64,000 nucleotides of DNA, taken from positions 1 to 64,000 of the forward strand of contig NZ_JABASU010000008.1 in assembly GCF_016107555.1 (NCBI RefSeq), in the 5' to 3' direction. Source of the stretch: Psychrobacter celer. GTDB lineage: Bacteria; Pseudomonadota; Gammaproteobacteria; Pseudomonadales; Moraxellaceae. Position numbers and translations under genes: made by a program. Of this stretch, positions 362 to 45,090 are shown piece by piece (positions within the stretch are counted from its first letter, which is position 1; the number at the start of each line of letters is the position of its first letter). Under the pieces are notes generated by a model that worked only from the letters and a program-made list of their open reading frames with translations, made no database searches and was not told where the DNA came from.

Positions 362-376
362 TAGCAAGCCTAAAAC

Positions 377-1396
377 CTAACCCCGCACATTCACCACATA
401 ACGCCCCACCGCCTGACCATCAATAAAGCGGTCTAGGTATTCTGGGGTTTGCTCAAGGGTGATTTCTTCCGCGTATTGCTCCAGATTGGGTAGTTTCATG
501 TCCGTTGCCACGCGCTGCCAAATCGCTTTTTTGTCCTCAAGCGGGATAAATACCGAGTCGATACCCAGTAGCGATACCGCACGCGTGATAAACGGCAATA
601 CGGTCATCGAAAATGACGCTGATGCTGCAAGGCCACAGGTCGTCACTGCGCCACCTGGTTTGGTTTGCTTGAGTAGGTTGGCAAGATAGTCACCGCCGAC
701 GGTATCGATGGCATTGGCCCATAGCGGACGGCCAACAGGGCGATTGCCGACTTCATTGATGGTGTCACGATGGCGCACTTCGGTGGCGCCTAACTCTTTC
801 AAGTGTTCGCTTTGCTCAGGCTTACCAGAGAAGGCGATAGACTCGTAGCCCAGCTGCGAGAGGATAGCGATACTGATAGTGCCCACACCGCCTGTCGCGC
901 CTGATACGGCAACGGGGCCATCGCTTGGTTTTGCGCCCATTTTCTCCAGCTTTTGGATGCTTAGCGCCGCCGTTAGGCCGCCTGTACCATAGATCATCGC
1001 TTCTTTTAGGCTCAGCGCTTCAGGACAAGGCAATGCCCAGTCGGCAGGGATGGCAATCATTTGCCCGAGTCCGCCTGCGGTGTTCATACCTAAATCATAG
1101 CCGAATACCACGACCTCTTGACCTTCGTTAAAAGTGCCAGACTTGTCGCTGACCACCACGCCTGCCGCGTCAATACCAGGGGTGTGCGGATAGTTTTTGG
1201 TGATGCTCTTATTGCCTGAGGCCGACATGGCATCTTTATAGTTGAGCGAGGAGTAATGTACTTCGATCAATAGATCATTGTCAGGCAGGTCGCTGACGTA
1301 GCGTTCTTGAATGTTTTTTGCGAACGTGCCTTCGCTGGTTTCTTCGACCACTAAGGCTTTAAAGGTTTTATTATCAGAGTTTGTTTGATTGGACAT
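377..1396 (-). CDS. acuI: AcuI/YhdH-type NADPH-dependent acryloyl-CoA reductase (MDR family)
   Basis: A 339-residue medium-chain dehydrogenase/reductase without the zinc ligands of classical alcohol dehydrogenases. The N-terminal GroES-like domain has the YhdH/AcuI hallmark SSLNYKDAM followed by HTPGIDAAG (about residues 50-80). The Rossmann half contains the GATGGVG nucleotide-binding loop (about 166-172). Characterised AcuI proteins reduce acryloyl-CoA to propionyl-CoA with NADPH and detoxify acrylate. An AGAGGAA ribosome-binding site sits 8 nt before the ATG. It follows another MDR gene by 42 nt on the same strand, so the two are probably co-transcribed and end at the terminator around 342. 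The exact substrate is inferred from family. Confidence 0.85.
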   Translation of the reverse strand: MSNQTNSDNKTFKALVVEETSEGTFAKNIQERYVSDLPDNDLLIEVHYSSLNYKDAMSASGNKSITKNYPHTPGIDAAGVVVSDKSGTFNEGQEVVVFGYDLGMNTAGGLGQMIAIPADWALPCPEALSLKEAMIYGTGGLTAALSIQKLEKMGAKPSDGPVAVSGATGGVGTISIAILSQLGYESIAFSGKPEQSEHLKELGATEVRHRDTINEVGNRPVGRPLWANAIDTVGGDYLANLLKQTKPGGAVTTCGLAASASFSMTVLPFITRAVSLLGIDSVFIPLEDKKAIWQRVATDMKLPNLEQYAEEITLEQTPEYLDRFIDGQAVGRYVVNVRG

Positions 1397-1438
1397 AATA
1401 TTATTCCTCTTTTGGTAAATAAACTTTACGGCGATACA

Positions 1439-2419
1439 TTAAGGCTTGATGAGTATCTTACCTTTTTTGTCTGATTGTACCTCATCAGAGACCGCTTTTT
1501 GGATGTCGTTTAAATCGTAAACACCGCCAGTCGGTAGTTTTAGGGTGCCATTAGCAGCATTTTCGATTAGCTCACCAGTTAAGCGCTGCATATCGTCTTT
1601 ACTGATGGTTTGCATCATATCGCTCGCCCAAAAGCCTTTGACTTGCGCCAGATTAAAGATCAGATTGCTAGGATTCAGCATCAGCGGTTTACCTGACATT
1701 GCGCCGAGTGACGCCATGACGCCATGTTTACCCAGCATTGATACTAGCTCGCCGCCTGGCTGACCACCAACGGCATCGACTGCGCCGCTGATTTGAGCAT
1801 CGCCAACGATTTTTTTGACTTGCTCTTTCCAGTCGTCATTATCAGTCACGACGTTGTTGTCAGTGATACCTAAATCGATAAGCTCTTGCTCAGATTTTTT
1901 GCTTCGTACTAGATTAATGGTGTTGATTTTACGAGTAGGAGCGAGCATCGCCATCGATTCACCAACCGCACCGTTAGCAGCGTTTTGGATGATCCATTGA
2001 CCCGGCTTGATGTTTAAAAACTCAATGAGCAACAGCGCGCTCATCGGCATAGCGATTAATTGAGCGGCCATCTCATCATCGATAGCGTCTGGTATAGGGA
2101 TGATGCTTTGAACTGGGGAGATAAAATACTCCGCCCACGTGCCTTGTACGCCTGAGACTACGACGCGCTGACCTTTTTCAAAGCCTGTGACCTCACTGCC
2201 TAAAGCATCAATAGTCCCTACCGCCTCACTACCGCCTGTCGCAGGCAGTTTAGGTTTATTACCGTACTCGCCTTTGATGGTAACAAGGTCGTGATTATGA
2301 ATGGAAGATAAGACAGTCTTGATACGGACTTCGTTGTCTTTGGGCTCTGGAGTCGGGCTGTCACTCACGCTAAGCACGTCAGATGGTTTGCCAAATTCGT
2401 TATAAGTTGCAGTGCGCAT
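1439..2419 (-). CDS. Zinc-independent MDR oxidoreductase, enoyl-reductase-like (paralogue A)
   Basis: A 326-residue MDR-superfamily protein. The N-terminal GroES-like domain contains SIHNHD and GGSEAVG, and the Rossmann domain has the NAANGAVG loop (about 145-152), an arrangement typical of 2-enoyl thioester reductase/quinone-oxidoreductase-like members. The start at 2419 is preferred because AAGGA lies 7 nt upstream of that ATG; a 12-codon upstream extension lacks such a site. The protein is strongly similar along its whole length to the product of 2743-3720, so the two arose by tandem duplication. It lies directly upstream of acuI. Substrate is unknown; reduction of an activated C=C bond with NADPH is the inference. 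Confidence 0.75.
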   Translation of the reverse strand: MRTATYNEFGKPSDVLSVSDSPTPEPKDNEVRIKTVLSSIHNHDLVTIKGEYGNKPKLPATGGSEAVGTIDALGSEVTGFEKGQRVVVSGVQGTWAEYFISPVQSIIPIPDAIDDEMAAQLIAMPMSALLLIEFLNIKPGQWIIQNAANGAVGESMAMLAPTRKINTINLVRSKKSEQELIDLGITDNNVVTDNDDWKEQVKKIVGDAQISGAVDAVGGQPGGELVSMLGKHGVMASLGAMSGKPLMLNPSNLIFNLAQVKGFWASDMMQTISKDDMQRLTGELIENAANGTLKLPTGGVYDLNDIQKAVSDEVQSDKKGKILIKP

Positions 2420-2654
2420 AGAAGTATCCTTTTTATTATTTATCCGTTTGAGCACTTAAAGAGATTATTGAGTACTCAAAGAAATTAAGTTTAACAATTT
2501 GCTTTTTATAAAAGATAACAACTCAGACTAAGCGTTCTCAACTTGGTTTTGGTTACTTAACGTTGTGGCTGACTTAGAATTGTAAGGGAGTCGAGATTAA
2601 GCATAAGGCTTTCTTAACGAGTGCTACTTTTGCACCAGAATTAACATTCTGCAT

Positions 2655-2693
2655 AAAAAAACAGCGCTTCTATCATAAGAAGCACTGTTTTGA
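2655..2693 (-). terminator. Rho-independent terminator downstream of MDR paralogue B
   Basis: On the minus strand an AGTGCTTCT / AGAAGCGCT stem with one mismatch closes a short loop and is followed by seven T residues. It separates the 2743-3720 gene from the 1439-2419 gene. Confidence 0.7.
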
Positions 2694-2742
2694 GTGAGCT
2701 GTTAAAGGACTTTAGATCAGGTAATTTACGCGTAGCAAATTC

Positions 2743-3720
2743 TTATGGCTTTAACAGCACCTTACCGTTTTTACCTGATTGTAGTTTGCCATCAACGGCC
2801 TTTGTGATATCTGCTAGATCAAATGTCGCTTCAACGGGCAATTTCAACTTGCCTTCGACGGCGCGCTCAATAAGCTCGTTGATAAGACGCTGTTTATTAT
2901 CCACGCTCATCTCTTGGCTGATTTTACTGCCCCAAAATCCTTTTACGATGGCTTGTTTAAAGATAAGATGCGTCGGATTGAGCGTCATGGGCTTACCTGA
3001 CATGATGCCAAAGGACGCCAAGGTGCCACCATGACCGAGCAGTGATAATAAGTCGCCACTGGCGTCGCCGCCGACAGAGTCGACTGCTGCGCTGATGCTG
3101 TCATCGCCGATGATTTGTCGGACTTGGTCTTTCCAGTCGTCATCTTCGGTGTTGATATTGTGTTTGATGTTGAGGGCTGCTAACTCTTTGACGGCCTCGC
3201 CACTACGTACGACGTTGATGGTATGGACGCCGCGCGCCGACGCCAGCATGGCAAGTGACTTACCGACTGCGCCATTGGCGGCATTGTGAATAAGCCATTG
3301 ACCGCTTTTTACTTCCAAGAACTCCAGCAGCATCAAGGCACTAAGCGGCATGGCGATTAATTGCGCGGCCATCTCATCATCCAGGCTTTCAGGGATGGCA
3401 AACACCATGTCCTCGTCAGCGACGAAGTACTCCGCCCAAGTCGCTTGCACACTGGCCGCCGCCACGCGTTGCCCGACTTTTAACCCTTTAACGTCACTAC
3501 CAACGGCGTCAATAATGCCCAGCGCTTCACTACCGCCGATCGCCGGCAGCTCGGGTTTAAAGCCATACTGACCGCGCACGGTGAGCAAGTCATGGTTGTG
3601 GATAGAGGCGAGTACCGTTTTGACACGGACTTCATTGGCCTGTGGCTCAGGGATAGGGCGATCGCCGAGGCTGAGGACTTCGGTGGGTTTGCCAAATTCG
3701 TTATAAGTTGCGCTACGCAT
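2743..3720 (-). CDS. Zinc-independent MDR oxidoreductase, enoyl-reductase-like (paralogue B)
   Basis: A 325-residue paralogue of the neighbouring MDR protein. It shares the opening TYNEFGKP, the SIHNHD block, GGSEALG, the HNAANGAVG dinucleotide loop and the C-terminal GKVLLKP. AAGGA precedes the ATG by a normal spacing. Unlike paralogue A it has its own terminator and so its own transcription unit. Its closeness to A and shared orientation point to local duplication followed by divergence; the downstream acuI is a more distant member of the same superfamily. Physiological substrate cannot be read from the sequence. Confidence 0.75.
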   Translation of the reverse strand: MRSATYNEFGKPTEVLSLGDRPIPEPQANEVRVKTVLASIHNHDLLTVRGQYGFKPELPAIGGSEALGIIDAVGSDVKGLKVGQRVAAASVQATWAEYFVADEDMVFAIPESLDDEMAAQLIAMPLSALMLLEFLEVKSGQWLIHNAANGAVGKSLAMLASARGVHTINVVRSGEAVKELAALNIKHNINTEDDDWKDQVRQIIGDDSISAAVDSVGGDASGDLLSLLGHGGTLASFGIMSGKPMTLNPTHLIFKQAIVKGFWGSKISQEMSVDNKQRLINELIERAVEGKLKLPVEATFDLADITKAVDGKLQSGKNGKVLLKP

Positions 3721-3770
3721 AATATATTCCTTTTTATCATTTATAAGGGTTTATAAGTATTGTTAGAGTG

Positions 3771-3885
3771 GGGCGTGTCTTCAATTCACTCGATAGTCAT
3801 CTAAATGGGCTAAAAATGGCTAATTTTCTTGTTTGACGACAATTTATCTCATTTTTATCGCCATTTTTGAAATGAAGACACGCCC
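3771..3885. mobile_element. MITE-like element with 13-bp terminal inverted repeats
   Basis: The ends are perfect inverted repeats, GGGCGTGTCTTCA at 3771-3783 and its reverse complement at 3873-3885, extending to 16 of 17 matches. A second nested inverted repeat, AAAAATGGC at 3812-3820 and GCCATTTTT at 3860-3868, makes the element a partial palindrome. There is no coding capacity. The right end abuts TAG, as does a related-looking element at 47376-47457. It lies upstream of MDR paralogue B. A non-autonomous transposon is the best reading; no parent transposase is in the window. Confidence 0.5.
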
Positions 3886-4010
3886 TAGTATTTATTAAGA
3901 AAACAATTTAGAACTACCTTAACAAGGGGTTTGGATCACTGACAAGGCAACTTTGGTTACCTGATGTTGTGAGTGGTTTTAGCTATGAATTTTTTAAAAA
4001 ATTACAAGGA

Positions 4011-4640
4011 TTAATTATCAATACTCGCTTCATGGTCAAGGCTATTAGTTTCAGGGTTACTCATCTTAGGATCGATTACCTTAAACTTCTCATCGACCAT
4101 ATTAGTCAGTAAAGGCTCACCGTCATCATTAACCCGGAATAAGCCATATTCAGCCGCCTCAAAAGCCTCGGCATGACCTTCTTGAAAGAAAAAAGCGTTG
4201 GTCGCCAGTTTGAGTACGCCATTACGGAGACGATAATAAATCGCCCTCTCATTTGTGCTTAAGTTGTCAGGCTTACTCTCTGCCAAGTGCTCAAACTGTC
4301 CGACATTATTATTATCCAAAGCGACGATGACATAGCCTTCCTCATGAGTAGGATAGCTGCCCGGAGCTGTATTTAAGGCGGCAAATACCTCATTCTCTAG
4401 CGCATAACGTAGCGTCATATAGTCGCCCTGCATAAAGCCGCGTGGATCAACGGGCGCAAGCTCAAGCAGTACGGTATCACCAGTGGCTAAATGGGTCTCG
4501 TATTTGGCGACATTGAGAGTCATTACTACTAAGATAACGATTAAGCCAAACAGCGCAATAGTAATTCTAACTGCTCGTTTTTCAAGCCAGCCAATCGAGC
4601 TAAGCACGGATGAATTTTGAGCCATAGTCTTATTATTCAT
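4011..4640 (-). CDS. GDYXXLXY-domain membrane-anchored protein
   Basis: A 209-residue protein with one N-terminal transmembrane segment (about residues 26-46) and a periplasm-facing remainder. It contains the family signature PRGFMQGDYMTLRY (about 66-79), which defines the GDYXXLXY domain. Members commonly occur next to DUF2157 and DUF4401 membrane proteins, exactly as here. The start overlaps the stop of the DUF4401 gene by 4 nt (4637-4640), so translational coupling is likely. The biochemical function of the family is unknown to me; the shared operon suggests one membrane complex. Confidence 0.8.
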   Translation of the reverse strand: MNNKTMAQNSSVLSSIGWLEKRAVRITIALFGLIVILVVMTLNVAKYETHLATGDTVLLELAPVDPRGFMQGDYMTLRYALENEVFAALNTAPGSYPTHEEGYVIVALDNNNVGQFEHLAESKPDNLSTNERAIYYRLRNGVLKLATNAFFFQEGHAEAFEAAEYGLFRVNDDGEPLLTNMVDEKFKVIDPKMSNPETNSLDHEASIDN

Positions 4641-5785
4641 GACAAGCGCTCCTTATCAGTACTCGTTGCTAATGCCACATTACTGGCAAAGTAACGTTTG
4701 ATCAGTAGCCAGCGCATCAGCAATAAGCCAACTCCGATAATAAGCATAGAAGCGGCTTTGAGTAATAATGACGTATCGAGCTGATAGTAATACCAAAAGA
4801 TATAGCTGACTAAGGCGATAATACCAAGCGCTAATAGCACTCGCTGACTATTGGCAAACGCTATGACAATAATAAGGCTAGTGGCGAGCAACCCTGAAAC
4901 GTAAATCGATACCACCCCAAGCACGGCGGTAGCGCCGACTATAATCAGTCCCGTTGCTGAGAGCAGTTGGATACGGTAGCGCTTCAAGATTAAGTAAGCG
5001 GCACATAAGCTAGCAAGGGCCAATAATCCTTGCGCTAAATAGTAGTTATAACGAAAAGGGTTACCGTCATTATCGAAGCTGCCATCATATTCAGCAACGA
5101 TAAAATAGACCGAAACGCCAAGCAACACAAGGGCGCTTGCATAGCCAAACGCGCTAATAATAGATTGTGCATAGACTTGATGTGGACGAGGAACGCGCCG
5201 TAATAGCGGATAGCGTTGCAATTGCGTCACGATAGTCAAGAGCGCTAATACGCCTAAACTTAGCTCAGGGAACTGATAATAATTGAACAAATAGACCATA
5301 AGCCCAAGCACGAGGCTAGCACCTAGCAGTCGATACACCACATTGGGCATGATAAAAGTCAAATAGCTTTGAATAATCAAAAATAGCCAGACTGATAAGG
5401 GGCGCTCTACGGCATAAAAGAACAATCCAGCAGCGACATACAACTGTCCTGTGATACTGATAGCAAAGGCTGAATATTCAAAGAATAGATTGCGATGTTT
5501 GCTTGCGGTATTAAAGAGCCAAAAGGCAAGAGCGCTTAAAGCTAGACCTACTATAATAAGGCCTATAGCGCTTTTTAACACATTACTTTCAGCCAAAAAT
5601 AAAGTCAAAAAACCTGTAAAAAACAAACTGGCTAACAAGCCACCGAAACCAATAAAAAGTTGCAGATACCAAGGGGTATGTTTCTGTGAGTCGTCATCTA
5701 AATGGTCGTTATATACGCTAAAATCTTTAGCGATTAGACCGATATTTTGCAGCGATGCCAGCGCTTGTTGGTCGTTATTATTCAT
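4637..5785 (-). CDS. DUF4401 polytopic membrane protein
   Basis: A 382-residue, very hydrophobic protein with a soluble N-terminal stretch of about 40 residues and then roughly ten or more predicted transmembrane segments to the C-terminus. The sequence and its position between DUF2157 and GDYXXLXY genes match the DUF4401 family. The start overlaps the upstream reading frame by 8 nt and the stop overlaps the downstream start by 4 nt, so the three frames form a tightly coupled operon. No catalytic motif is visible and no function should be assigned. Confidence 0.75.
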   Translation of the reverse strand: MNNNDQQALASLQNIGLIAKDFSVYNDHLDDDSQKHTPWYLQLFIGFGGLLASLFFTGFLTLFLAESNVLKSAIGLIIVGLALSALAFWLFNTASKHRNLFFEYSAFAISITGQLYVAAGLFFYAVERPLSVWLFLIIQSYLTFIMPNVVYRLLGASLVLGLMVYLFNYYQFPELSLGVLALLTIVTQLQRYPLLRRVPRPHQVYAQSIISAFGYASALVLLGVSVYFIVAEYDGSFDNDGNPFRYNYYLAQGLLALASLCAAYLILKRYRIQLLSATGLIIVGATAVLGVVSIYVSGLLATSLIIVIAFANSQRVLLALGIIALVSYIFWYYYQLDTSLLLKAASMLIIGVGLLLMRWLLIKRYFASNVALATSTDKERLS

Positions 5786-6059
5786 GATCGGTTCCTTTTT
5801 TATTCAAAGGAGTATTCACCGCTTGTAAGATTTTAAGGTCTTCAGAAGGAGAGTTATCTGATTTTATAACTTCAAATAACCACTTGATAGCATAAGTAAC
5901 CATGCCAATCAGTAGAAGGGTTAAGACGAGTAGGCTGCCTGCATCAAAGTCATTAGGTAGTATGTTAACTGCCCAAGACATCACTACAATAATGAGAGAA
6001 AAGCAAAGGTAGGTCAGCATCAGTAGATCACTGCGCTGTCGATAAAAACGCCAATACAT
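5778..6059 (-). CDS. C-terminal piece of amber-interrupted DUF2157 membrane protein
   Basis: This 93-codon frame encodes two hydrophobic segments and a polar tail. It lies in the same reading frame as the DUF2157 gene just upstream: between them are only a TAG at 6084-6086 and eight sense codons (6060-6083). Joined, the two parts give about 387 residues, a normal DUF2157 length. I therefore read it as the severed C-terminus of that gene. The ATG at 6059 has no clear ribosome-binding site, so independent translation is doubtful, though coupled re-initiation or read-through cannot be excluded. Its end overlaps the DUF4401 start by 8 nt. Confidence 0.6.
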   Translation of the reverse strand: MYWRFYRQRSDLLMLTYLCFSLIIVVMSWAVNILPNDFDAGSLLVLTLLLIGMVTYAIKWLFEVIKSDNSPSEDLKILQAVNTPLNKKGTDHE

Positions 6060-6083
6060 AAAGGCGCACCAGCCCGCCCAAAG

Positions 6084-6941
6084 CTATAAAGACAGGAGCG
6101 TCGCCAACACACTATCCACAGCAAAAACAGTAATAATAGCGAGGAAAGTGATAGCGATAGTGCTGATTAAACCAACAAGATAAGTACTCCAGTGCAAACC
6201 TGCTTGAGCTTGCAATAGTATATCGTCGTAAGTCGTTTTGGAGCTTGAAAGGTTAGGACTAGCAATAGAAGTATCTGAACCAACAATCTCGCTATTAACT
6301 TGGCTAGACATCGCACGTTTTTGACCCAAAAAGATAAGCCAAAGATTTAGGGCAACCAAATTGATCAGTGCCACTATCGCCACTCTTATAACATCTTGAT
6401 AGCTACTATCAACGAACGATAGATCTACCACCTCCAAATAAAGCAATAGAAAAGTATTAAGCAGCCCAAGCCACAATAGCCACAGTGCCGGAAAGCGGGC
6501 AATAATGACCCAAGGGGTAATCAATACTGCCCAAGCAAAAAACAGCTGCCAAGTATCCGCGCCAGTCTGATATACCTGCCCAAATAGCGCCAGCAAACTA
6601 CCCGTAATGATACTAGCGACCAGCAATAATAGCTGGCGAATAAAATGAAACCTGCGCCGAAAAGAGAGAGCCACGTAGAGCGCAATAGTGATAACCAGAG
6701 CGCCCTCGACCAAAGCGAATTTGCCTAGCTTACCCAAATTTTGCCAGTTATAAGCAATAAAAAACACCAGTGATAATACCAATGCCAGCGCACCGATAAT
6801 CAGCAAGGCTTTATCAAAGAAGCTAAGCCATGTTCTTTTGCTGGGATAGACTTTTAGGTGTTTGGCAGCAGCCTCTGCATGCTTGAGAGGAAGTTTGTGT
6901 TGTTCAATGAGTTGTTCGATAGCACGCCGCGTTTGACTCAT
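6084..6941 (-). CDS. DUF2157 membrane protein, truncated by an in-frame TAG
   Basis: A 285-residue product whose first 60 residues are soluble and helical, followed by several transmembrane segments, matching the DUF2157 family. AGAGGG lies 7 nt before the ATG. The frame ends at an amber codon (6084-6086), yet the same frame stays open afterwards for another 101 codons down to 5778. The family length is near 390 residues, so the present stop removes the last quarter. Either this is a recent nonsense mutation, a sequencing error, or a read-through site. The gene heads an operon with DUF4401 and GDYXXLXY genes. Confidence 0.75.
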   Translation of the reverse strand: MSQTRRAIEQLIEQHKLPLKHAEAAAKHLKVYPSKRTWLSFFDKALLIIGALALVLSLVFFIAYNWQNLGKLGKFALVEGALVITIALYVALSFRRRFHFIRQLLLLVASIITGSLLALFGQVYQTGADTWQLFFAWAVLITPWVIIARFPALWLLWLGLLNTFLLLYLEVVDLSFVDSSYQDVIRVAIVALINLVALNLWLIFLGQKRAMSSQVNSEIVGSDTSIASPNLSSSKTTYDDILLQAQAGLHWSTYLVGLISTIAITFLAIITVFAVDSVLATLLSL

Positions 6942-7071
6942 AGCGCCCTCTGTTTAACAGAATATTTAGCTTATCTTAGCGGTTTTTTTAGGCGGCATTT
7001 ATAGAGTTGAGTAAACAGAGGTAGGCGGGTGCAGCTAGAGGGTTTGAGGGTTTGAGGGTTTTAAGAGTAAA

Positions 7072-7323
7072 CTAATAAAACTCAATGCGGCTCAGCACGT
7101 GCTCTTGGATAAAATATGCGCAGATATAAGCGCTCGGCCAAGCAAACACAAAGGCTAAACTCCACGAACCCAATAAATCAGAGAAAAAATGATCGCTATA
7201 GCCAGCCTTTACCAGTATCAACGCCGCTGAAATAATAAGCGACATCATCATGGCCATTAGTCCGGTAAATACGAGACGATAAAGCTTACGACTCATACGT
7301 ATTCTCAGGGTAGGAAGTGCCAT
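7072..7323 (-). CDS. DUF2798 small membrane protein
   Basis: An 83-residue protein with a basic N-terminus and two transmembrane helices (about residues 15-37 and 50-70), fitting the DUF2798 family. An alternative start is the ATG at 7296, nine codons in, which keeps the whole hydrophobic core; neither start has a strong ribosome-binding site. It stands alone between the DUF2157 operon and the divergent racemase gene. The family has no established function. Confidence 0.6.
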   Translation of the reverse strand: MALPTLRIRMSRKLYRLVFTGLMAMMMSLIISAALILVKAGYSDHFFSDLLGSWSLAFVFAWPSAYICAYFIQEHVLSRIEFY

Positions 7324-7449
7324 AGATTTTTATCCCAAAATTTTGATAATGGCTATCATATAGTCTCTACTTTGCTGGGTAAATTGGTTATTGTTAATCA
7401 CTATGTTTGTAATAGCTGAATTATCATAAAGCTATCGCTAATATTGTGA

Positions 7450-7477
7450 TTGACTAATATTTGTGACTGCATAATAA
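7450..7477 (+). promoter_or_regulatory. Candidate sigma-70 promoter for the racemase gene
   Basis: TTGACT at 7450-7455 and TAATAA at 7472-7477 are separated by 16 nt and lie 20 nt before the start codon. Read by eye only. Confidence 0.4.
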
Positions 7478-7496
7478 ATGATAAAAGGAAGGGACG

Positions 7497-8228
7497 ATGA
7501 GAACTGAGAAACAAAAAATGCCGCACCAAAAAACGTTAGGCATCATCGGTGGCATGAGTTGGGAGAGTACCGAGAGCTATTATCGACTGATCAATGAAGG
7601 GGTCAAGGCTGAATTAGGTGGCCTGCATTCAGCGGACCTGCTTATTCATAGCTTAGACTTTGCGCCGATTGGTGAGCTGCAAGCAAAAGGCGAGTGGGCA
7701 CAGATGGGCGCGATATTAGTGAGTAGCGGCAAACGTCTGCAAGCGGCTGGCGCGCAAGGCTTGCTTATTGCGACTAATACCATGCACAAGGTAGCTGATG
7801 AGGTACAGGAGGCCACAGGCTTACCGATTATTCATATTGCCAATACAACCGCTAGTGCGATTCAAGCGCAGGGTCTGACTAAGATAGGTTTGCTCGGTAC
7901 GCAGTTTACCATGACGCAGGGTTTTTATAAGCAGCGCCTGACAGATAGCGGTTTGCAAGTGGTGATACCTAAAGATGCGGCGAGAGCAGAGGTGCACCGA
8001 ATTATCTATGAGGAGCTGTGCCAAGGGCAGTTATTGGACAGCTCAAGAGAATATTATCAAAGGGTCATTGAGCAATTAGCTGATGCAGGCTGCGAGGGGG
8101 TGATTTTGGGCTGTACTGAAATTGGCATGCTGATTAAGCAAGCGGACAGCCCCATCCCTGTGTTTGATACCACTGCTATCCATGCGCGAGCGGCGGTAAG
8201 GTTTTTAGTGGATAAGGCAGTCGGCTAA
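7497..8228 (+). CDS. Aspartate/glutamate racemase, YgeA-like
   Basis: A 243-residue member of the PLP-independent Asp/Glu racemase family. The N-terminus has the GIIGGMSWEST motif (about 15-25). The first catalytic position reads TNTMHK (about 87-92), with Thr where aspartate racemases have Cys; the second, GCTEIG (about 202-207), keeps its Cys. This Thr/Cys arrangement is that of E. coli YgeA, an L-Asp/L-Glu-preferring racemase, so similar specificity is inferred. AAGGAAGG precedes the ATG at good spacing, and a TTGACT/TAATAA promoter lies upstream. It appears monocistronic. Confidence 0.85.
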   Translation: MRTEKQKMPHQKTLGIIGGMSWESTESYYRLINEGVKAELGGLHSADLLIHSLDFAPIGELQAKGEWAQMGAILVSSGKRLQAAGAQGLLIATNTMHKVADEVQEATGLPIIHIANTTASAIQAQGLTKIGLLGTQFTMTQGFYKQRLTDSGLQVVIPKDAARAEVHRIIYEELCQGQLLDSSREYYQRVIEQLADAGCEGVILGCTEIGMLIKQADSPIPVFDTTAIHARAAVRFLVDKAVG

Positions 8229-8285: not shown

Positions 8286-8444
8286 TTAATGGCTACCATG
8301 AACCTTTTCATACACTTTGATGATACGGCGCAGCGGTAAGCGCTTCCATGACGTCGTTGGTAGGGCAAATAGCAGCATGGTTTTGGCGATAGACCCTTTG
8401 GTAAGGTCACGCGATTTACTGGAGGGCGTACTCGTGTCGCTCAA
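8286..8444 (-). pseudogene. MATE efflux-pump N-terminal remnant
   Basis: Reading from a TTG at 8444, preceded by AAGGA, the frame gives SRDLTKGSIAKTMLLFALPT, the characteristic N-terminal stretch of MATE-family multidrug transporters. The reading then departs into an unrelated basic tail and stops after 52 residues instead of about 450. The rest of a MATE gene is absent: the lip1 and racemase genes flank it. I infer a large internal deletion that left the start region, possibly joined to the last residues of the same gene. The remaining gap to lip1 (8445-8750) shows nothing else I can support. Confidence 0.5.
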
Positions 8445-8750
8445 GGTGCATCCTTTTATGCCACTTTGATTGGGCTTTGATGAGTGTCAGTTGGGTTTAA
8501 TTGAGAATAGATGGTGAGCTTAGGGTTGTAGTTATAACCACTACTGCTATAAAACGCTCCTATTATAAATAACAATGCCTAAGCTATCTGGGCTAGAAAG
8601 GTAAACAAAAGCTAACGATAGTCTTGTATATGAACATAGAAGATAAGGTTTTGACTAGAAAGTTATAAATTAAAAAATCTAGGCACAAGTTTAGCGCTAA
8701 AATCAAAGTCAGATTTTGTTTCCACCTTAATTCTAAACAAGGATGCCTCC

Positions 8751-9701
8751 ATGCTATTTAAACGCTTAGGCCTTGCCGCACTATTTAGTCTCTCTATCGT
8801 AGGCTGTACCACAGCGCCCAATACGCTTGCCGTTAACACTACCCAAAAAATCATTCAATATGAGCGCAATAAGTCTGATCTAGACGTCAAATCATTTACG
8901 CTAGCTTCTGGCGACAAGTTAGTTTATGCCGAAAACGCCAACCTAACAGGCGAGCCCTTACTCCTTATTCACGGTTTTGGTGGTAATAAGGACAACTTCA
9001 CCCGTATCGCTGACGAGTTAGAGGACTATCATCTGATCATTCCTGATCTGCTGGGTTTTGGCGAGTCGAGCAAACCTATGAGCGCAGACTATCGCTCACA
9101 GGCACAGGCCACGCGCTTACATGAGCTGTTGCAAGCTAAGGGATTGGCAAGCAATATTCACATCGGCGGTAACTCGATGGGCGGCGCGATCAGTGTCGCG
9201 TATGCCGCAAAGTACCCAAAAGACGTCAAGAGTCTATGGCTCGTCGATACCGCAGGGTTTTGGTCAGCAGGCGTGCCAAAATCGCTTGAGGGCGCAACCT
9301 TTGAGAACAACCCATTGCTGATCAATAGCAAAGAAGACTTCTACAAGATGTACGATTTTGTCATGTATAAGCCGCCTTATTTGCCCAAGTCAGTCAAAGC
9401 GGTATTCGCACAAGAGCGTATCAATAATAAGGAGTTGGACGCCAAAATCCTTGAGCAAATCGTCACTGATAATGTCGAGGAGCGTGCTCAAATCATCGCG
9501 GACTATCATATTCCAACGCTCGTGGTTTGGGGTGATAAAGATCAAGTCATCAAACCTGAAACGGTCAATGTGATCAAAGACATCATCCCGCAAGCGCAAG
9601 TCATTATGATGGAAGATATCGGTCACGTACCGATGATAGAGGCAGTAGAGCAAACGGCTGAGGATTATAAAGGGTTTCGTGCAACGCTGAAGGGTCAGTA
9701 A
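8751..9701 (+). CDS. lip1: Lip1-like alpha/beta-hydrolase lipoprotein (lipase/esterase)
   Basis: A 316-residue exported hydrolase. The signal peptide ends in a lipobox with Cys19 (SIVGC), so the protein should be lipid-anchored. The hydrolase fold shows the oxyanion HGFGG (about 74-78), the nucleophile elbow GGNSMGG (Ser about 143), a VVWGDKDQV segment with the acid residue, and GHVPM with the catalytic His. From memory it is very close to Lip1 of Psychrobacter immobilis, a cold-active lipase. An AAGGA site precedes the start. It ends 1 nt short of the convergent nitronate monooxygenase gene. Confidence 0.88.
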   Translation: MLFKRLGLAALFSLSIVGCTTAPNTLAVNTTQKIIQYERNKSDLDVKSFTLASGDKLVYAENANLTGEPLLLIHGFGGNKDNFTRIADELEDYHLIIPDLLGFGESSKPMSADYRSQAQATRLHELLQAKGLASNIHIGGNSMGGAISVAYAAKYPKDVKSLWLVDTAGFWSAGVPKSLEGATFENNPLLINSKEDFYKMYDFVMYKPPYLPKSVKAVFAQERINNKELDAKILEQIVTDNVEERAQIIADYHIPTLVVWGDKDQVIKPETVNVIKDIIPQAQVIMMEDIGHVPMIEAVEQTAEDYKGFRATLKGQ

Positions 9702-44266: not shown

Positions 44267-44887
44267 TTATTCTTTGGTCGCCATAGTAATGGTATAGGTT
44301 TTGCCCTGTTTGACCTTTTCGCTATTACCAAACACTTCGGTAAACGAGCGCTTCATAAACTGGCGCAAACCATTGATGGTCACCACATAAAACCGCCCGC
44401 CTTGACGCATGCGCGCATAGGCATCGAGGAAGTATAGATAGTGCTGCTCTTTGCCGACTTTGGCTGGCAAGTTTGACATCACAAGGCTAAAGTCTTTGTC
44501 CGCTGCCACATGATTGAAGCCGTTTGATAAATGTACATCGACATTTTTTAGACCGTTTTGCACGCAGTTACGGCGCGCATATTCTACCGCCATAAAGTCT
44601 TTATCAATAAGTGTATGCTGACCGTTCGGGCACTCACGCGCTGCCGTCATGCCGAGCACGCCATAGCCGCAGCCTAAATCGATCGAATCATCATCCGCCC
44701 GAAAATCCACATAATCGAGCAGCATTAGGCTACCGTCATCGAGCTTTTGTGGTGAAAAAATACCCCAAGTGGTCGAAAAATCAAACGGTTTACCCAGTAC
44801 CTCTTGGCGAAAATGAATGTCTTCGCGCCAGTGTTCAGCATTTTTTAGCAGGTCGGCAGGGGGACGGTGGTTTGTAGAGTGGCTCAT
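44267..44887 (-). CDS. RsmC-like class I methyltransferase
   Basis: A 206-residue SAM-dependent methyltransferase consisting of a single Rossmann domain. SAM motif I is DLGCGYGVLG (about 71-80), and the target-base motif is SNLPAKVGKE (about 138-147), a variant of the NPP motif of N-methyltransferases. Family relatives of this size are the MTS/YbxB type, related to the C-terminal half of RsmC, the 16S rRNA m2G1207 enzyme. The substrate is not certain; rRNA guanine is likely. It converges with lptG at the shared terminator. Confidence 0.75.
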   Translation of the reverse strand: MSHSTNHRPPADLLKNAEHWREDIHFRQEVLGKPFDFSTTWGIFSPQKLDDGSLMLLDYVDFRADDDSIDLGCGYGVLGMTAARECPNGQHTLIDKDFMAVEYARRNCVQNGLKNVDVHLSNGFNHVAADKDFSLVMSNLPAKVGKEQHYLYFLDAYARMRQGGRFYVVTINGLRQFMKRSFTEVFGNSEKVKQGKTYTITMATKE

Positions 44888-45090
44888 GGGATTCTCGGAT
44901 AGTAGATAGGTAAAAGGTTAATAAGCTATGGCAGGTATTGTAGCGAGAAAAGGGTCAGTTTGCAGCTAGGCATTGATAGAGCAGATTCTATACTTTACCG
45001 CCTCTATCTCAGATTGTGCTCTGCATATCAAATCTACAATCTCGCTTTCACCACATAAGTATAGGTTTGAGTCATTGAAATTTTTTAATA

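What the first reader, a model, noticed from the sequence alone, without database searches (positions are those of the whole stretch)
5778..6941. DUF2157 gene interrupted by an in-frame amber codon
Two frames on the minus strand are collinear, in the same phase, separated only by TAG and eight codons, and together restore the normal family length near 387 residues. This is a nonsense mutation, a base-call error or a read-through site in an otherwise intact operon.
Basis: seen in the sequence. Interest (0 to 1): 0.6.

Follow-up and report, generated by a model that had tools for sequence, protein, structure and literature searches.

The report
Membrane gene broken by one stop
In this Psychrobacter genome the first gene of a little-studied three-gene membrane operon carries a single stop codon about three quarters of the way along; nearly all related species compared here have the gene whole or have no operon, so this looks like an ordinary, recent gene breakage rather than a new way of reading stop codons.

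Summary
On the minus strand a DUF2157 frame opens at 6941, meets TAG at 6086-6084 (codon 286) and stays open in the same phase to TAA at 5780-5778. The C-terminal piece is homologous to relatives, not chance: one 68.9% identical alignment to G089 crosses the TAG. In 58 of 58 other Psychrobacter genomes with one readable frame the TAG column holds a sense codon (Leu 27, Ser 12, Ile 6, Val 4, Ala 4, Thr 3, Gly 2). Readthrough is disfavoured: release factor 1 is present, none of 42 tRNA places has a CTA anticodon, TAG ends 10 of 37 genes with conserved ends, and no relative has the stop. Best reading: a recent nonsense mutation (a base error or mutated isolate cannot be excluded) that removes most of the eighth and all of the ninth and tenth long predicted helices. 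The operon looks dispensable in the genus: 42 of 105 genomes lack it, 24 of these with the flanking genes closed up, and one keeps only a decayed remnant of about 80 codons. Ordinary; low interest.

The parts
6084..6941 (-). 5' part of the DUF2157 gene: 285 codons and the TAG at 6086-6084
   Evidence: Pfam PF09925 5.3e-30
6084..6086 (-). in-frame TAG, codon 286, inside predicted helix 278-302
   Evidence: model; sense codon in 58 of 58 congeners
5778..6083 (-). 3' part of the DUF2157 gene, 101 codons and TAA, still open; listed ORF starts at ATG 6059
   Evidence: homologous to relatives across the TAG
4637..5785 (-). DUF4401 membrane protein gene, intact; its ATG overlaps the DUF2157 end by 8 bases
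   Evidence: Pfam PF14351 2.5e-36; match in 63 of 105 genomes
4011..4640 (-). GDYXXLXY protein gene, intact; overlaps the DUF4401 end by 4 bases
   Evidence: Pfam PF14345 5.8e-35; match in 62 of 105 genomes
7072..7323 (-). DUF2798 gene, upstream flank used to find empty sites
   Evidence: match in 100 of 105 genomes, one of them weak
2743..3720 (-). alcohol-dehydrogenase-like gene (name recalled from its sequence, no family search), downstream flank
   Evidence: match in 104 of 105 genomes, 96 of them at E <= 1e-90 and the rest probably paralogues

Best explanation
A single-base nonsense mutation, recent on the scale of the genus, created TAG at codon 286 of a DUF2157 gene. Ribosomes stop there, giving a 285-residue protein that lacks most of predicted long helix 8 and all of helices 9 and 10. 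Relatives carry DUF2157, DUF4401 and GDYXXLXY as neighbouring genes or fused into one chain, so the three very likely form one membrane complex; losing the end of DUF2157 should disable it and may also weaken translation of DUF4401, which starts inside the untranslated 3' end. Shown: the TAG, the open 3' frame, its absence in relatives, RF1 and the tRNA set, repeated absence of the operon in the genus. Inferred: that the helices lie in the membrane, that the protein is inactive, that the change is one base and recent, and that it is in the living strain rather than the assembly.
For: 58 of 58 congeners have a sense codon at the column and go on to a later end; the column is variable (7 amino acids) and 13 of 58 codons are one substitution from TAG. 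RF1 present above the curated cut-off. 42 tRNA places read, none with a CTA anticodon. TAG ends 10 of 37 genes with conserved ends. Fusions: 12 of 58 genes share one frame with DUF4401, and in G044 one 1027-codon frame holds all three. The operon looks dispensable: DUF2157 gives no match in 43 of 105 genomes, one of them because its contig ends in the gene (G080); in 24 of the other 42 the two flanking genes are no more than 1.3 kb apart (counted by hand), and in 12 of 12 such sites fetched no operon match is left. G072 keeps only about 80 codons of DUF2157 in two frames between the flanks.
Against: No second lesion has gathered in the 3' part, and codon rates give no clear sign of relaxed selection: omega on this branch for the 91 C-terminal codons is 0.57 against 0.24 elsewhere, not distinguishable from 0.24 (2dL 1.84) or from 1 (2dL 0.49), and the intact relative G089 gives 0.94 for the same codons, higher than its background (2dL 4.66). 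So decay is not shown; the lesion only has to be recent. Reads and other strains of the species were not available. Some of the 42 genomes without a match are incomplete, and divergent copies could be missed.
Confidence: 0.78

Rival explanations
1. Sequencing or assembly error: the strain's gene is intact and one base of contig 72 is wrong.
For: The rest of the frame is clean with no further lesion; 13 of 58 relatives' codons are one substitution from TAG; draft of 73 contigs.
Against: No other gene of 40 compared with G089 carries an internal stop, nor does any of 46 ORFs compared with G100; the genome scores 99.99% complete. Substitution errors are rarer than indels in finished contigs (general knowledge, not tested).
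Confidence: 0.12
2. The gene has become two genes: the ribosome restarts at ATG 6059 after the TAG and the two pieces assemble, keeping the complex and the translational link to DUF4401.
For: An ATG lies eight codons after the stop and the frame then runs into the DUF4401 start; the 3' part is still open; the 20 bases before this ATG pair with the anti-Shine-Dalgarno string at -5.8 kcal/mol, within the range of five annotated-like starts nearby (-4.0 to -8.5).
Against: The G-rich stretch that pairs lies about 13 bases or more upstream of the ATG, further than usual (sequence). The cut falls inside a predicted helix, not in the low-confidence stretch 210-247. A Met at this place is found in 38 of 58 unbroken relatives (read by eye), so it needs no special reason. 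0 of 58 relatives are split here.
Confidence: 0.06
3. Programmed or leaky readthrough of the TAG makes some full-length protein.
For: 3' part open and of normal length; the sequence after the TAG is G-rich, which raised readthrough in E. coli reporters, and TAG reporters there averaged 0.49% at 18 C and 0.80% at 25 C against 0.03% at 37 C, with hotspots (passages of PMC11126739); Psychrobacter has cold-living members (recalled).
Against: TAG in none of 58 relatives; no suppressor tRNA found, RF1 present; UAG readthrough of 0.01% (P. putida, judged from the UGA value beside it), 1 in 20,000 (P. aeruginosa, likewise) and, in E. coli, 500 times below a UGA level of about 12% (passages of PMC9481147).
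Confidence: 0.03

Closest known systems
DUF2157 membrane protein family (Pfam PF09925)
   Same: Residues 23-154 hit the family at 5.3e-30; longer homologues in 58 Psychrobacter genomes
   Different: Here interrupted by TAG; the Pfam model covers only about the first 40% of the gene
Nonsense-allele pseudogene (recent gene inactivation)
   Same: Single in-frame stop, rest of frame open, private to one genome, gene dispensable in the genus
   Different: No second lesion and no shown relaxation, so very young or an error
LiaF of the Bacillus lia/PSP system, whose N-terminal helices are assigned to DUF2157 (PMC11237479, one passage seen)
   Same: Shares the Pfam domain name
   Different: LiaF has a C-terminal DUF2154 globular domain per that passage; here ten long predicted helices and partners DUF4401 and GDYXXLXY
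GDYXXLXY protein that copurified with FtsX and EnvC in Fusobacterium nucleatum (PMC5915739, Table 2 passage seen)
   Same: Same family name as the third gene of this operon
   Different: Distant organism; one name in a list of 16 proteins, no test of this operon's function

Membership tests
DUF2157 (PF09925) | Pfam match above the gathering score | tested here: met
   104.5 bits against 32.4
Pseudogene by nonsense mutation | Premature stop absent from orthologues | tested here: met
   0 of 58 congeners stop at the column
Pseudogene by nonsense mutation | Relaxed selection after the lesion | tested here: inconclusive
   C-terminal omega 0.57, not distinguishable from background or from 1; control branch G089 0.94
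Pseudogene by nonsense mutation | Lesion confirmed in reads or other strains | not testable with these tools
   one genome per species is held; no reads
Programmed stop-codon readthrough gene | Stop conserved among relatives with conserved 3' frame | tested here: not met
   sense codon in 58 of 58 congeners
Amber reassignment or suppression (pyrrolysine, suppressor tRNA) | tRNA with CTA anticodon; RF1 missing or TAG rare as stop | tested here: not met
   no CTA among 42 tRNA places; RF1 present; TAG ends 10 of 37 conserved gene ends. Pyrrolysine enzymes were not searched for.
Naturally split gene | Relatives with the same two-piece layout | tested here: not met
   0 of 58
LiaF / PSP system | DUF2154 (Toastrack) domain beside DUF2157 helices | tested here: not met
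   only DUF2157 found in the first piece and nothing in the second at E <= 0.001

The most novel reading that the evidence does not exclude
The TAG is a leaky, temperature-sensitive valve: in the cold some ribosomes pass it (or restart at ATG 6059), so a cold-living Psychrobacter makes the DUF2157-DUF4401-GDYXXLXY complex only at low temperature.
Probability: 0.03. Interest if true: 0.5.

Novelty: new member of a known kind. Interest (0 to 1): 0.12.

Why it matters
As a broken gene it matters little beyond annotation. The context is mildly useful: a three-part membrane system without a known function in what I searched, fused into one chain in some species and missing or decaying in others, so strains with and without it, and this natural truncation, could be compared to find what it does.

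Tried and rejected
Readthrough by a changed code or suppressor tRNA: disfavoured. Split-gene layout shared by relatives: not found. Relaxed-selection test: inconclusive, and intact control branches vary as much (C-terminal part, G089 0.94; whole gene, this branch 0.27 with 2dL 1.36, G082 0.31 with 2dL 4.09; DUF4401, G089 0.10 with 2dL 5.5). Two apparent further broken genes (DUF4401 and 44270-44980) are over-extended start sites in the reference ORFs. Structure comparison: the model (mean pLDDT 72.8, pTM 0.60) has 0 matches with E <= 0.001 in the PDB; the seven top rows are ESX secretion membrane parts with query TM-scores of 0.22-0.33, although Foldseek gives probabilities up to 0.99; not used. 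NCBIfam: no family at E <= 0.01 for the first piece, DUF4401 and GDYXXLXY. Promoter and terminator patterns: 14 promoter-like sites against 7.9 expected by shuffling, 7 terminator-like against 3.8, two of these just after the TAG; not used. Papers: searches for DUF2157, DUF4401 and GDYXXLXY gave three papers, of which passages of two were read and PMC9848294 was seen only in the listing with the start of its abstract. The readthrough search listed 12 of 50 papers; passages of two were read. A search for Psychrobacter with pseudogene and nonsense mutation gave none.

The notebook's first entry gives the TAG place wrongly by three bases; the third entry and this report correct it (6086-6084).

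Full report
What is there. Translating 6941 to 5778 on the minus strand gives 285 residues, TAG at 6086-6084, then 101 residues to TAA. The first piece is DUF2157 (PF09925, residues 23-154), the genes downstream are DUF4401 and GDYXXLXY. The three genes overlap by 8 and 4 bases, so translation of each is probably linked to the one before (inference). Of 18 named loci that encode a relative, 14 are Psychrobacter, and the genus search sets the window's genome among 104 others; the species was not identified.

Is it chance. No. The relative G089 aligns from residue 1 to 395 with 68.9% identity and one stop. After the TAG, 91 comparable codons are 62.6% identical to G089 and 44-54% to seven further relatives.

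What occupies the column. I aligned the gene from 58 congeners: 29 loci given and 29 stretches taken; one further row (L041) was a duplicate and is not counted. Of the 62 of 105 genomes with a match, the four not in this count are the window's own, G072 (remnant), G075 (gene in four pieces in two frames; 85% complete) and G091 (split between two contigs). At the column: Leu 27, Ser 12, Ile 6, Val 4, Ala 4, Thr 3, Gly 2; no stop. Thirteen of the 58 codons are one substitution from TAG. An earlier count on 43 rows with duplicates also had no stop. Outside the genus, Shewanella, Sulfurovum and Halomonas homologues also align past the position (to residues 355-361); a Campylobacterales one aligned only to residue 210.

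Is TAG read as a residue here. RF1 matches its model at 524.5 bits against a cut-off of 423.25 with no stop inside. The tRNA model found 42 places; 30 came as loci and stretches were fetched for the other 12. ARAGORN was run on 33 loci that between them hold all 42 places, and no gene has anticodon CTA or TCA. In the window, 37 of 39 genes compared with G089 have conserved ends: TAA 22, TAG 10, TGA 5. UAG readthrough measured in Pseudomonas and E. coli was of the order of 0.005-0.03% (passages of PMC9481147; the E. coli figure is worked out from 12% divided by 500). In E. coli reporters TAG averaged below 1% at each of four temperatures, higher in the cold, with hotspots (passages of PMC11126739).

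What is lost. An AlphaFold model of the read-through protein on 19 sequences (mean pLDDT 72.8; ten-residue blocks of 78-95 over residues 251-360) has ten helices of 19 residues or more; codon 286 lies in the eighth (278-302) and two more long ones follow. A protein ending at 285 lacks most of the eighth and the last two. A restart at Met 295 would begin in the same helix.

Is the gene decaying. Rates on this branch: N-terminal 255 codons omega 0.27, C-terminal 91 codons 0.57, DUF4401 339 codons 0.12, against 0.16, 0.24 and 0.19 elsewhere; none differs significantly from its background (2dL 2.3, 1.8, 2.3); omega 1 is rejected for the N-terminal part and DUF4401 but not for the C-terminal part (2dL 11.6, 34.4, 0.5). 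Control: with the intact G089 as the tested branch the C-terminal value is 0.94, above its background (2dL 4.66). So the data neither show nor exclude relaxation; the lesion, if real, is young. The codon model was my own script, nine sequences, with long branches, so these values are rough.

The operon in the genus. DUF2157 gives a match in 62, DUF4401 in 63 and GDYXXLXY in 62 of 105 genomes (the weakest DUF4401 match, G096, is a doubtful 5.7e-4). The flanking genes give matches in 100 (DUF2798) and 104 (reductase-like; 96 at E <= 1e-90). Of the 43 genomes without a DUF2157 match, G080 lacks it only because its contig ends inside the gene, leaving 42, several of them incomplete. Hand count: in 24 of the 42 the two flanks lie within 1.3 kb on one contig; in 14 they lie 6.5-7.2 kb apart; in 4 (G062, G073, G074, G081) the pair could not be placed. 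In 12 of 12 closed sites that I fetched, no operon match is left. Of the 14 wider sites three were fetched and hold no operon match either (G054, G098, G045); I read the genes of one, G045, where five ORFs look like an oligopeptide-type ABC transporter (by eye). G072, a single-contig genome, keeps the first 80 or so codons of DUF2157 in two frames between the flanks and nothing of the other two genes. G100 has the flanks about 225 bp apart; it shares 97% identical DNA with the window at 372-1403 and 8380-9679 and 92% at 1402-3737, but only 80% at 7074-7737 and mostly 66-86% over the rest of the window, which suggests recent exchange around the site (inference). The picture is an operon that comes and goes, which makes a nonsense mutation in it unsurprising.

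What the operon does is unknown in what I searched. In 12 of 58 genomes DUF2157 shares one frame with DUF4401 and in G044 all three share one frame, which points to one complex. A GDYXXLXY protein is in a list of 16 that copurified with both FtsX and EnvC in Fusobacterium (PMC5915739, Table 2 passage), so a role at the cell envelope is plausible, no more.

Verdict. A stop codon private to this genome, most likely a real and recent nonsense mutation, with an assembly error as the main rival.

Noticed in passing
window 3771-3885: A short element with 18-nt inverted ends (GGGCGTGTCTTCA...) just downstream of the operon; 73 matching pieces in this genome, itself included (40 of 84 candidates scored), so a high-copy MITE-like repeat. 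Other copies show as two pieces about 45 bases apart, so the window copy seems to lack that middle part.
   Followed up: partly
window 1442-2419 and 2743-3720: Two tandem reductase-like genes about 60% identical to each other; the first is 97.5% identical to G100 while the second is 88%.
   Followed up: no
window 372-3737 and 8380-9679 against G100 contig 4: 92-97% DNA identity to a genome that is otherwise mostly 66-86% identical in this window: probable recent exchange around the operon site, with the operon absent in G100.
   Followed up: partly
L158 (G044:C1:24000-27400): One frame of about 1020 codons holds DUF2157, DUF4401 and GDYXXLXY; 11 further genomes fuse the first two.
   Followed up: partly
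L095 (G072:C1:576000-585000): Remnant of DUF2157 (about 80 codons, two frames) between the flanks, the rest of the operon gone; the neighbouring gene like window 7497-8228 also matches over only about 52 residues at high identity.
   Followed up: yes
L112 (G045:C2:577000-589000) 2227-8228: Five ORFs that look by eye like an oligopeptide ABC transporter occupy the site between the two flanks where the operon would lie.
   Followed up: no
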